A stretch of 9,195 nucleotides of DNA from Gemmatimonadota bacterium. Lineage in GTDB: Bacteria; GCA-2686955. Location of the stretch: positions 1-9,195 of the forward strand of contig NYZA01000155.1 in the NCBI GenBank assembly GCA_002686955.1, read 5' to 3'. This document shows positions 1-4,443 of the stretch, piece after piece. The first letter of the stretch is position 1, and every line of letters begins with the position of its first letter. Under the pieces are notes generated by a model. That model did not search any database. It was given only the letters and a program-made list of their open reading frames with translations, and was not told where the DNA came from. The translations under genes and the position numbers were made by a program.

Positions 1-183
1 CGAGAGGTGTTCGCACGAGATGGCGGACGCTGCGCCTTCGTCGATCGTCACGGCCGTCGGTGCAACAGCCAATGGCTCCTGGAGCTCGACCACATACACC
101 CCTTCGCCCTCGGCGGGTCGCATCATCCGGACAACCTGCGGCTCTTGTGCCGAGCCCACAATCAGGGGCGTGGATCGGGCTGA
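1..183 (+). CDS. HNH endonuclease domain, 3' end of gene (5' end outside window)
   Basis: Frame 1 is open from the first base to a TGA at 181-183 and gives about 60 residues of a typical HNH nuclease domain. It begins REVFARDGGRC, followed by a second cysteine (GRRC), the core LELDHIHPFALGG, and the closing NLRLLCRAHN. The paired cysteines plus the DH and HN elements are the metal-binding and catalytic parts of the fold, so the protein would be expected to nick or cut DNA. In this family the domain usually runs about ten residues past RAHN. Here the frame ends after NQGRGSG, so the extreme C-terminus is shortened or frame-shifted. The upstream domain is not visible, so the full protein type cannot be stated. 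The downstream DNA is decayed sequence on the other strand, which suggests the 3' end of this gene was lost in a rearrangement. Confidence 0.72.
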   Translation, partial: REVFARDGGRCAFVDRHGRRCNSQWLLELDHIHPFALGGSHHPDNLRLLCRAHNQGRGSG

Positions 184-607: not shown

Positions 608-648
608 AGCCAAGGGGCGTGCCTGGCGACGAGGGGCGGGGAGGCGAT
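608..648. repeat. imperfect 41-bp direct repeat, copy A
   Basis: This copy matches 2003-2043 in the same orientation at about 35 of 41 positions. The core tgcctggcgacgaggggcgg (20 bp) is identical in both. The two copies lie on either side of the AAA/DUF4143 ATPase gene, about 1.4 kb apart. Read on the minus strand, both copies can encode SPPLVARH followed by PWL, so they may descend from a duplicated coding fragment or belong to a dispersed repeat family. I see no third copy in the window. Confidence 0.65.
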
Positions 649-695
649 CCCTGACTCCCGGACCTGCGAATGCCGTATGCGACAGTTCGCTCGAG

Positions 696-1862
696 TCATC
701 CGAGCAACGATTCCAACCGCGCGCTGAGTCCGCACAACGAGCAGAGCTCCACGCCCGGCCTCAGCCGTTCCTCCCCGGGTTCGGGCGTGACCACCAAAAG
801 TGTCTCTAAGTCGCACTGGACCATACTTCCGGGCAGAGCCTTCGAGAGGCGGCGCGCGATCGAGAGTTTGCATTCGATACCGACGCGTCGGCCCCGGCGC
901 TCGATGATCAGATCGATCTCCGCACCGGATGAAGTGCGATAGAAGGAGAGTCCGGCGTCGGGTACCAGATTAGCGACAGTTTCGACCACGAAGCCCTCCC
1001 AAGATGCTCCCACGATCGGGTGGCCCATCAGCTCGTCCCAGGTGCGAAGGTCGAGCAAGCGATGGACGATGCCGGTATCCCGAATGTACATCTTTGGGGA
1101 CTTGACGAGCCTCTTCTTGGTATTGACCTCCAGAGGCGGAAGCAGGCGGACCATGAAAGTCTGCTCGAGGGCCCGCAGCCAACGACGAATCGTAGCGTCG
1201 CTGACGTCCATGGACTGGCCCAGTTTGGAGTAGTTGAGTGCCTGCCCGTGGTAGTGCGCCAACATTGTCCAGAAGCGCCTCATACTCACTCCCGGAAGTG
1301 AGTAGCCGAAGCCGGGCAAGTCCCTTTCGAGGAATGTGCGGATGAACTGCTCTCGCCAATCGCTGCTCATCTCGTCTCGTTCGGCGAGCAGGCTGTCGGG
1401 GAAGCCTCCCCGTCCCCAAAGTTCACTGAGGGGCGTCTCGGGTGCGACCTCGTCGTAGTGGAAGGGGCTCAGTTCGAGATACGCGATGCGGCCGGCCAAC
1501 GACTCCGAACTCTGACGCAAAAGCTCCGGGGAAGCCGAACCTAGGAGCAGAAAGCGGCCGGGATGCCGCGCCCTGTCGATTAGTACTCGGAGTATCGTGA
1601 AGAGTTCCGGACTCCGCTGGACCTCGTCGATGCAGACGAGCTCATGGGCGTGCTGCGCGAGGTAGTACTCCGCATCGTCGAGTCGGGCAAGATCCGCGGG
1701 GCTTTCGAGGTCGAGGAATAGAGCATTCTCCCGGTGTTTCTCGAACTCCCTTGCGAGCGTTGACTTACCGCATTGCCGGGGGCCGATGAGAGCGACCGCG
1801 GGGAAACTGGCGAGTGCCGCCGACAGCCGAGCTTCCATGCTACGCGCGATGTAAGTTTGCAT
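696..1862 (-). CDS. AAA_14 / DUF4143 family ATPase
   Basis: The protein has 388 residues, normal for this family. The N-terminal half is a P-loop ATPase: Walker A GPRQCGKST (residues 27-35), Walker B LVCIDEVQ (75-82), and a sensor-like LLLGSAS (105-111). The C-terminal half is DUF4143, with a helix-turn-helix-like stretch (about 213-235), WEGFVVE (288-294), and GAEIDLIIERRGRRVGIECK (313-332). The E..D..ExK spacing in that last stretch recalls PD-(D/E)xK nuclease-like folds. Members are widespread, patchily distributed accessory genes of unclear role, often near toxin-antitoxin or mobile DNA. I chose the ATG at 1862 (MQTYIARSME) because family members start about here and GGGAA lies 6 nt upstream. 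A TTG nine codons earlier is also open. The gene stands alone among decayed fragments, is bordered by a 41-bp repeat, and has its own promoter and palindrome. No frameshift or lost motif is seen. Confidence 0.9.
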   Translation of the reverse strand: MQTYIARSMEARLSAALASFPAVALIGPRQCGKSTLAREFEKHRENALFLDLESPADLARLDDAEYYLAQHAHELVCIDEVQRSPELFTILRVLIDRARHPGRFLLLGSASPELLRQSSESLAGRIAYLELSPFHYDEVAPETPLSELWGRGGFPDSLLAERDEMSSDWREQFIRTFLERDLPGFGYSLPGVSMRRFWTMLAHYHGQALNYSKLGQSMDVSDATIRRWLRALEQTFMVRLLPPLEVNTKKRLVKSPKMYIRDTGIVHRLLDLRTWDELMGHPIVGASWEGFVVETVANLVPDAGLSFYRTSSGAEIDLIIERRGRRVGIECKLSIARRLSKALPGSMVQCDLETLLVVTPEPGEERLRPGVELCSLCGLSARLESLLG

Positions 1863-1890
1863 ATTCGATTCCCAGGAATGAATATGCAAA
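1856..1890 (-). promoter_or_regulatory. palindromic operator or leader hairpin over the ATPase start
   Basis: The plus strand reads TTTGCATATTC (1856-1866), then a single G, ATTCC (1868-1872), CA, GGAAT (1875-1879) and GAATATGCAAA (1880-1890). The outer 11 bases and the inner 5 bases are perfect inverted repeats, giving 16 paired positions interrupted by one unpaired G. The palindrome contains the ATG (1860-1862) and the GGGAA ribosome binding site of the ATPase gene, and it begins 1 nt downstream of the predicted -10 box. It could be an operator for a dimeric repressor, possibly the gene's own product, or an mRNA hairpin that hides the start site. The symmetry is seen directly; the function is inferred. 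Confidence 0.75.
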
Positions 1891-1891
1891 G

Positions 1892-1920
1892 AAAATAGGC
1901 CCTGTGTATGCTGCGATCAA
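1892..1920 (-). promoter_or_regulatory. sigma70-like promoter of the ATPase gene
   Basis: On the minus strand, TTGATC (1920-1915) and TATTTT (1897-1892) are separated by exactly 17 bp. Each hexamer matches the sigma70 consensus at 4 of 6 bases. Transcription would begin around 1884-1886, inside the right arm of the palindrome, so a protein bound there would block initiation. This AT-rich patch stands out from the GC-rich surroundings. Confidence 0.55.
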
Positions 1921-2143
1921 GTGCGGAACCACGCGCCCGCTGCCCCCACCGCGAATCAGGATGCCGGAAGAGGCGAGCTGAAAGGCAGGTTCGGGGTTGA
2001 GGAGCCACGGGGAATGCCTGGCGACGAGGGGCGGCGAATCGATCGCCAGTGCGCGGTCACCCATCCACTCCTTGAATCGACCGATCGGCGCCGGGGAGAG
2101 CGCCCGGTCGCGATTTCGCTCAGGCGGCCGAAGAGGGAGTCGT
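1921..2143. other. gene-free stretch
   Basis: No supported gene is visible in this stretch. Several open frames cross it on both strands, but none has coherent domain motifs. One minus-strand frame (about 2110-1925) has mildly coding-like composition, including IGRFKEWMGDRALAI and the repeat-encoded SPPLVARHSPWL. It may be a decayed gene end. The 41-bp repeat copy B lies inside. Confidence 0.4.
2003..2043. repeat. imperfect 41-bp direct repeat, copy B
   Basis: This is the partner of 608-648, same orientation, with an identical 20-bp core and about 35 of 41 matches overall. It lies some 110 bp beyond the palindrome and upstream of the ATPase promoter, so the two copies bracket the whole ATPase transcription unit. 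Differences in the shared minus-strand frame are A/D and A/S changes, which is compatible with a common coding origin. Confidence 0.65.
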
Positions 2144-3592: not shown

Positions 3593-3671
3593 GCCGAGCG
3601 TTACCGAGAAGGAACGTCCAGGCGTGGGAGAAACAGAGAAGGAGCGAGGAAGCAGCTCCCCGGAGACAGTC

Positions 3672-4443
3672 ATGGAGATCAGAAGACCGGGCGTGATCGG
3701 CGCCGGAACGATGGGCAACGGAATCGCCCAGGTCTTTGCCCAGTCGGGCTACGAAGTGAAGGTGGTCGACACGGAGCAGGGGCGTCTCGACGCCGCGATG
3801 GCGGGGATCGAAAAGAGCCTTGGGCGGCTCGTCAAGAAAGAGAAAATCTCGTCCGATCAGAAGGATGCGACCCTCTCGCGGATCTCCGGCACTCTCGATT
3901 TGGCGAGCCTGGGCGACCGCGACGATCCTAGCCACCAACACCTCGAGCATCTCGATCACGCGGTTGGCCGCGGCGACCGGCCGTCCCGACAAGGTGATCG
4001 GTATGCACTTCATGAACCCGGTTCCGCTCATGCGCCTGATCGAGGTGATCCGGGGCATGCACACGAGCGACGAGACCTGCGCGACCGTGGCCGGCCTCTC
4101 CGAAGCGCTCGGCAAGGTGCCTTGCGAAGTGAACGACAATCCCGGCTTCGTCGCCAACCGCGTGCTCATGCCGATGATCAACGAAGCGGTTTTCGCATTG
4201 ATGGAGGGAGTGGCGACCCGCGACGCGATCGACACCGTCATGAAGCTCGGCACGAACCAACCTATGGGTCCGCTCACTCTGGCCGACTTCATCGGACTCG
4301 ATGTTTGCCTGCACATCCTCAATGTCCTCTACGATGGGTTCAAGGACTCGAAGTATCGGCCCTGCCCTCTTCTGGTGAAGATGGTCGACAGCGGCGACCT
4401 GGGCAGGAAGACCGGCAGGGGGTTCTACGACTACAAAACCTGA
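3672..4443 (+). pseudogene. hbd: 3-hydroxybutyryl-CoA dehydrogenase, internal deletion and frameshift
   Basis: The enzyme interconverts acetoacetyl-CoA and 3-hydroxybutyryl-CoA with NAD(P)H. The first frame starts at ATG 3672, with GGAG 6 nt upstream. It shows the dinucleotide fold with GAGTMG (residues 9-14) and VVDTE (31-35), and runs well to SLGD ending at 3917. A second frame, open from about 3919, resumes with [14 protein letters not shown] and continues to a stop at 4441-4443. It holds the family's catalytic Ser (TNTSS), His (GMHFMNP), Glu (LIEVIRG) and Asn ([10 protein letters not shown]). Intact enzymes have about 27 further residues between these blocks, including the DLVIEA segment that lines the cofactor site. 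The remaining 772 nt correspond to a full gene less about 83 nt, a number that also breaks the frame. Either the gene is dead or the assembly lost a block. A GTG at 3624 is in frame but less likely as the start. Confidence 0.85.

What the first reader, a model, noticed from the sequence alone, without database searches (positions are those of the whole stretch)
1856..1920. Large palindrome over transcription start, ribosome binding site and ATG of an AAA_14/DUF4143 gene
A 16-pair nearly perfect palindrome (one bulged G) begins 1 nt after a -10 box in a promoter with ideal 17-bp spacing, and it contains the start codon. The placement suggests repression at both the DNA and RNA level. AAA_14/DUF4143 proteins have no settled function, and a built-in control site could point to autoregulation or to a host or phage-sensing role. 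The sequence is seen directly; the control is inferred.
Basis: partly seen in the sequence, partly recalled or inferred. Interest (0 to 1): 0.6.

Follow-up and report, generated by a model that had tools for sequence, protein, structure and literature searches.

The report
ATPase-nuclease gene carrying its own operator
The palindrome over the start of this gene belongs to a very large family of DNA sites that each AAA_14/DUF4143 protein appears to read with its own winged helix, with a readable amino-acid-to-base code, so the gene most likely controls itself and probably travels together with its private switch.

Summary
In detail: 35-nt palindrome at 1856-1890, minus-strand gene 696-1862, ATG inside. 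It is not a local curiosity. Homologues across many phyla carry a palindrome at the same place: 52% of 269 genes versus 1.2% of shuffles. The main class has fixed geometry: a 33-bp core centred on a base, lying on the -35/-10 or on the start codon. Arm letters covary with the protein. In an unsupervised scan of 6080 residue-base pairs, the top four couplings join half-site bases -7, -6, -5 and -8 to residues 222, 223, 223 and 212: the start of the recognition helix and the helix before it. This replicated on new loci, survived phylogenetically independent pairs, and predicted sites in another subfamily. Each main-class site occurs once per genome, directly before its own gene. So the DUF4143 protein (PADLOC candidate PDC-S01, function unproven) most likely binds its own promoter as an autorepressor. 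An RNA switch is not supported. Unexpectedly, gene plus operator is often bracketed by direct repeats (34 of 241 loci; 3 inverted; 1 in swapped control) and sits as a sharp-edged 1.35-1.4 kb unit in different places in Agrobacterium and Thermus plasmids. Binding, repression, cleavage and mobility are untested at the bench.

The parts
1856..1890 (.). Palindromic operator; 33-bp core centred on base 1873; half-sites (gene strand) TCTTTGCATATTCATT and, from the other side, AGTTTGCATATTCGAT
   Evidence: geometry shared with homologues; only copy in its genome within 3 mismatches
696..1862 (-). AAA_14/DUF4143 gene, 388 aa (AAA+ ATPase, winged helix, PD-(D/E)XK-type domain); PADLOC PDC-S01
1860..1862 (-). 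Start codon ATG, inside the downstream arm
   Evidence: sequence; N-terminus aligns with homologues
1892..1920 (-). Possible promoter TTGATC-17-TATTTT, ending 1 nt before the palindrome
   Evidence: sequence; weak, 8 of 12; TATTTT kept in L009
1870..1873 (-). GGGA, possible weak ribosome-binding site in the centre of the palindrome (AGGAAG at the same place in L009)
   Evidence: sequence
1446..1802 (-). AAA_14 ATPase domain (residues 21-139); Walker A GKST and Walker B DE invariant in the family
1140..1292 (-). Winged helix-turn-helix (residues 191-241)
   Evidence: AlphaFold2 model, mean pLDDT 90.7
1161..1199 (-). Recognition helix (residues 222-234); D222 (1197-1199) and A223 (1194-1196) couple to half-site bases -7 and -6/-5
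1227..1229 (-). S212, second helix of the winged helix; couples to half-site base -8
867..998 (-). PD-(D/E)XK-type motif residues E289, D317, E330-x-K332, 98-100% conserved
   Evidence: secondary structure
608..649 (+). Direct repeat, copy beyond the gene's 3' end (86% identical to the other copy)
2003..2044 (+). Direct repeat, copy upstream of the operator

Best explanation
The palindrome is a DNA operator for the protein encoded directly behind it. A dimer of the AAA+/winged-helix/PD-(D/E)XK protein reads the two half-sites. The N-terminus of each recognition helix (residues 222-223) and residue 212 in the preceding helix contact bases -5 to -8 of each half-site; another part of the protein, possibly the loop at residues 311-312 of the nuclease-like domain, reads the outer bases near -13 and -16. 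Because the site covers the core promoter (main class) or the region from just after the -10 to the start codon (the window's class), occupancy would block transcription of the gene: a self-limiting, single-gene circuit with one private operator per copy. Shown here: conserved geometry, one site per genome next to its own gene, and replicated residue-base covariation. Inferred: direct binding, the dimer, repression rather than activation. Unknown: what relieves it (ATP state, a DNA or phage signal) and what the nuclease-like domain does.
For: Enrichment at the gene start: palindrome score 10 or more in 52% of 269 distinct homologues versus 1.2% of shuffles and 0.6% of gene-interior windows; first 87 homologues, score 8 or more 83% versus 12%. 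Main class consensus AACCTTGAAAATTCGGATTGACANTCCGAATTTTCAAGGTATAAT; all 58 class A sites have odd length. In class A the best -10 lies at about +18 in 46 of 123 genes (about 4 expected) and the ATG 6-8 nt later. Mutual information over 6080 residue-base pairs: (-7,222), (-6,223), (-5,223), (-8,212) rank 1-4 on all data and 1, 2, 4, 5 on an independent set. Prediction on new loci: 65, 70, 62, 78% correct against permutation maxima of 43, 52, 47, 62%. In 95 phylogenetically independent pairs the best of 388 columns is 222 for -7 (1e-6), 223 for -6 (2e-6) and -5 (2e-7), 212 for -8 (6e-6). Counts: D222 with C at -7 120/124, H222 with G 59/62, Y222 with A 16/16, K223 with G at -6 123/128, P223 with A at -5 76/80. 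The same code predicts sites in a second subfamily, 36 genes: log-odds 1.30, best of 2000 permutations 0.76. The model places 222 as the first residue of the recognition helix. Site unique in 17 of 19 genomes scanned (two had no match), always about 60 nt before the AAA_14/DUF4143 domain; window site unique.
Against: No binding, footprint or expression data. About 30% of main-class genes lack a site of this strict geometry (191 of 271 score 9 of 12 or better; 6% of shuffles do). Residue A223 of the window protein is rare, so only its D222/C(-7) and S212/T(-8) contacts can be checked; both fit. The outer-base couplings (-13, -16) are weaker once phylogeny is controlled: 312 p=0.001, 311 p=0.02, 309 and 343 not significant. 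The winged helix of STAND/NLR-type ATPases, the closest folds apart from SSO1545 and PABY2304, is often structural (own knowledge). Covariation shows recognition, not the sign of regulation. In class B the promoter-in-palindrome signal may only reflect the conserved arm letters.
Confidence: 0.8

Rival explanations
1. The palindrome is mainly the place where the protein acts as a nuclease or recombination factor on its own DNA, so that gene plus operator is a minimal selfish mobile unit and autoregulation is secondary.
For: Nuclease-like active-site residues 98-100% conserved. Direct repeats bracket the unit in 34 of 241 loci, versus 3 inverted and 1 in a swapped-locus control. Sharp-edged 1.35-1.4 kb units sit in different contexts: Thermus L499 versus L507 at 99.4%, Agrobacterium L496 versus L505, with gene-less relatives L503 and L504. 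Many copies per genome.
Against: No copy of the palindrome at the 3' end; no terminal inverted repeats; the palindrome is intact beside the gene, so it is not a spent target; repeats are variable in length and absent from about 86% of loci; another enzyme or homologous recombination could move the unit.
Confidence: 0.2
2. RNA-level control: a hairpin in the 5' leader hides the ribosome-binding site and ATG.
For: In the window the strand folds at -14.5 kcal/mol, z -3.4, over GGGA and ATG.
Against: Main-class sites lie upstream of the -10; L009 has no hairpin (z +0.5); G.U-type mismatches are not clearly favoured over A.C (24 versus 19 in class B); the letters covary with a DNA-reading helix; no Rfam match at the site.
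Confidence: 0.06
3. Binding site of some other host regulator.
For: Palindromic operators are common for many repressors (own knowledge); no tool result points to another regulator.
Against: One site per genome next to this gene only; the same geometry in many phyla; covariation with this protein's recognition helix.
Confidence: 0.03

Closest known systems
PDC-S01, PADLOC single-gene phage defence candidate (AAA_14/DUF4143, COG1373-type ATPase)
   Same: The window protein is a member by HMM (E 7e-89). The published description, ATPase fused to a PD-(D/E)XK superfamily domain, fits (PMC12988326).
   Different: Known only as an unvalidated candidate; in the papers found, nothing is said of an operator, a recognition code or flanking repeats.
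SSO1545 / PABY2304 archaeal AAA+ ATPases (PDB 2fna, 2qen)
   Same: AAA+ plus winged helix over residues 1-271, Z 16-17, rmsd 3.0.
   Different: Sequence identity only 18-19%; DNA reading through the winged helix is the new point here.
Autoregulated winged-helix repressors, e.g. AbiEi of the AbiE toxin-antitoxin defence system (PMC3985639 listed; details from own knowledge)
   Same: A defence-linked gene controlled through inverted repeats at its own promoter.
   Different: Here reader, ATPase and nuclease-like domain are one protein from one gene, with a different private operator for each copy.
Insertion sequences and gene cassettes
   Same: Discrete unit, direct repeats, changing genomic context.
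   Different: No terminal inverted repeats; repeats of 17-292 nt rather than short fixed duplications.

Membership tests
Pfam AAA_14 + DUF4143 | Both domains above the curated cut-off, Walker motifs present | tested here: met
   146.6 and 97.3 bits versus cut-offs 28.1 and 27; Walker A and B invariant
PDC-S01 (PADLOC) | HMM match | tested here: met
   E 7e-89 and further models
PDC-S01 (PADLOC) | Anti-phage activity | not testable with these tools
   Validation pending for most such candidates according to PMC12988326
PD-(D/E)XK nuclease superfamily | D...E-x-K active site on a beta-sheet core | tested here: met
   D317, E330, K332 at 98-100%; strands 304-310, 315-322, 325-331
PD-(D/E)XK nuclease superfamily | Fold match to solved nucleases | tested here: inconclusive
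   Foldseek rows to Cdn1 and Card1 have low TM-scores; the domain was barely tested by the alignments
Autoregulated DNA-binding repressor | Operator overlapping its own promoter or start | tested here: met
Autoregulated DNA-binding repressor | Operator read by its own product | tested here: met
   Residue-base covariation, replicated and phylogeny-controlled; indirect, no binding assay
Autoregulated DNA-binding repressor | Binding and repression | not testable with these tools
   Needs EMSA and a reporter
Cis-regulatory RNA (Rfam) | Match to a known family at the site | tested here: not met
   No match at gathering score at the start region of 12 loci including the window gene
Insertion sequence / DDE-type transposon | Terminal inverted repeats | tested here: not met
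   Terminal matches within the range of shuffles in three units
Insertion sequence / DDE-type transposon | Short fixed target duplication | tested here: not met
   Repeats 17-292 nt, present in 34 of 241 loci

The most novel reading that the evidence does not exclude
AAA_14/DUF4143 genes (PDC-S01) are minimal self-governing mobile units: one protein that reads its own private promoter palindrome through a modular recognition code, represses itself, and uses its ATPase and nuclease-like parts to help insert or recombine the unit, often at the 3' ends of host genes with duplication of the target. Their huge numbers, now counted as anti-phage defence, would then partly reflect selfish spread.
Probability: 0.2. 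Interest if true: 0.95.

Novelty: new variant of a known kind. Interest (0 to 1): 0.85.

Why it matters
This family is reported as the fourth most common defence system in prokaryotes (PMC12988326), yet its action is unknown. The code gives a direct, cheap handle: a defined DNA ligand for each protein, predictable from two or three residues, and point mutants that should switch specificity. It makes the open question whether this is defence, selfish element or both testable, and offers many orthogonal, differently addressed repressors in one scaffold.

Tried and rejected
Chance palindrome: rejected. RNA switch: rejected as the main reading. Regulon of a shared regulator: rejected, one site per genome. 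Terminal palindromes or inverted repeats at the 3' end: none. Avoidance of cross-talk between paralogues: operators differ within a genome, but no more than between genomes. Insertion exactly at host stop codons as a general rule: only 9 of 34 versus 4.3 expected. Nuclease-domain residues 309 and 343 reading base -13: not significant in independent pairs. Virus scan for the protein gave nothing. No homologue by sequence in the PDB. Literature: DUF4143 occurs in one held paper, PF13635/PF13173 in one, COG1373 in seven, none with 'palindrom' beside DUF4143; subscription journals and preprints are not held, so prior work may exist.

Full report
What is there. The minus strand at 1890-1856 reads TTTGCATATTCATTCCTGGGAATCGAATATGCAAA, with 11 perfect outer pairs and 4 inner pairs around one bulge. 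The ATG of a 388-aa AAA_14/DUF4143 gene (696-1862) lies in the downstream arm. It is the only inverted repeat of its length in the window and unlikely by chance at this place (0.18% of shuffles). The suggested promoter is weak by consensus, but its -10 is kept in the closest relative.

Homologues. Eighty loci chosen only by protein similarity, plus paralogues from the same genome, were read at the gene start. Most show a palindrome, with different letters from gene to gene: score 8 or more in 83% versus 12% of shuffles. In 269 distinct genes score 10 or more is reached by 52%, against 1.2% of shuffles and 0.6% of windows inside the genes. The main class has a rigid geometry: all 58 class A sites are centred on a base, with arms CCTTGAAAATTCGGA, a TTGACA-like -35 in the centre and TATAAT directly after. 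In this class the ATG mostly follows the -10 by 6-8 nt, so the message would be leaderless and would not contain the palindrome. The window belongs to class B: the same 33-bp core and half-site (TTGCAWATT), placed about 15 bp nearer the gene, over the start codon. Cultured strains show it too, e.g. Spirosoma linguale DSM 74 plasmid pSLIN02.

One site, one gene. The window's palindrome occurs nowhere else in its genome (84.5% complete) within 3 mismatches. A pattern for the main class was scanned in 19 genomes: 17 had exactly one site, two none, and the reversed control pattern none; every site lay about 60 nt before an AAA_14/DUF4143 domain.

Who reads it. Half-site bases were compared with all protein columns by mutual information, with sites chosen blind to the protein. 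The strongest couplings were -7 with 222 and -5 and -6 with 223, with -8/212 sixth. The letters make chemical sense: D222 with C, H222 with G, Y222 with A, K223 with GG, P223 with AA. New loci, mostly from phyla little used before, were then collected. Rules learned on the first set predicted the new sites far better than permuted residues, and the same four couplings ranked 1, 2, 4 and 5 of 6080 in the new set alone. In 95 phylogenetically independent pairs the best of 388 columns is exactly 222, 223, 223 and 212 for the four bases. The code also predicts sites of a second subfamily never used for training (36 genes, 0 of 2000 permutations as good). An AlphaFold2 model (mean pLDDT 90.7) puts residue 222 at the first turn of the recognition helix of a winged helix and 212 in the helix before it. 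In the window, S212/T(-8) and D222/C(-7) fit; the close relative L009 has A212 and one half-site with C at -8, as the code expects, and one with T.

What the protein is. AAA+ ATPase with invariant Walker motifs, winged helix, and a PD-(D/E)XK-type domain with E289, D317, E330 and K332 conserved in 98-100%. The closest solved folds are SSO1545 and PABY2304, then NLR/STAND proteins including Avs5. PADLOC calls it PDC-S01, reported as the fourth most common defence candidate in prokaryotes and unvalidated (PMC12988326). In Thermus thermophilus HB27 the AAA_14/DUF4143 gene TT_P0211 was 6.6-fold up with a plasmid present, only when Argonaute was present (PMC4406477).

Most likely working. A dimer of the product binds the palindrome and blocks its own promoter. 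Shown: geometry, uniqueness, covariation. Inferred: direct binding, dimer, repression. A further coupling of outer bases -16 and -13 to loop residues 312 and 311 of the nuclease-like domain is suggestive but weaker after phylogenetic control.

The unit. The window gene and operator lie between imperfect 42-nt direct repeats (608-649, 2003-2044). Across homologues such bracketing repeats occur in 34 of 241 loci; inverted repeats in 3, a swapped-locus control in 1, repeats within one flank in 11 and 5 (positional test 34 bracketing versus 6 not, 14% expected). Repeats run from 17 to 292 nt. Some are 3' ends of host genes, including the 3' half of a tRNA-Arg gene (L384); ends at stop codons are only about twice the chance rate overall (9 of 34 versus 4.3). 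In Agrobacterium plasmids a 1392-bp unit sits after an integrase gene in L496 and at the 3' end of a DUF6428 gene in L505, while L503 and L504 lack it; the DUF6428 stop codon lies in the first 15 nt of the unit. In Thermus plasmids a 1351-bp unit at 99.4% identity lies in two contexts, the second beside transposase genes that may have moved it. The unit therefore moves or is moved; no terminal inverted repeats were found. Whether the protein itself drives this is open and is the most novel reading.

Verdict. The wider result, a family-wide operator with a replicable recognition code in a hugely abundant uncharacterised gene family, is not described in the literature available here.

Noticed in passing
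window 608-649 and 2003-2044: Imperfect 42-nt direct repeats (86%, 20-nt exact core) bracket the gene and its operator; similar bracketing repeats occur in 34 of 241 homologue loci.
   Followed up: partly
L496 2436-3827, L505 1501-2891, L499 1952-3302, L507 1501-2852: The gene with its operator lies as a sharp-edged 1.35-1.4 kb unit in different contexts in Agrobacterium and Thermus plasmids; L503 and L504 lack it.
   Followed up: partly
L384: The direct repeat flanking the unit is the 3' half of a tRNA-Arg gene, as at many island insertion sites.
   Followed up: partly
main-class homologues, residues 308-312 and 343: Outer half-site bases -13 and -16 couple to residues of the nuclease-like domain (Q/N312 with A at -16: 72 of 74), suggesting that this domain also reads DNA; weaker after phylogenetic control.
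   Followed up: partly
own genome G000 and G009, G011, G559, G561: The family is multi-copy: 16 matches in the window's genome, 20-21 in a Smithella and a 1.9-Mb Chlamydiales genome, 41 matches (some split) in one gammaproteobacterium.
   Followed up: no
window 3624-4443: The 3-hydroxyacyl-CoA dehydrogenase-like gene appears frameshifted near 3915-3930 (reading passes from the 3624 frame to the 3820 frame); assembly error or pseudogene.
   Followed up: no
L161, L029, L455, L162, L257: A second, similar operator copy lies further upstream of the gene in a few homologues.
   Followed up: no
window 1-183 +: HNH endonuclease fragment at the contig edge.
   Followed up: no
L262, L265: Homologues in two genomes of the Bacteroidota group carry 1-2 in-frame TAG codons: pseudogenes or stop-codon recoding.
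   Followed up: no
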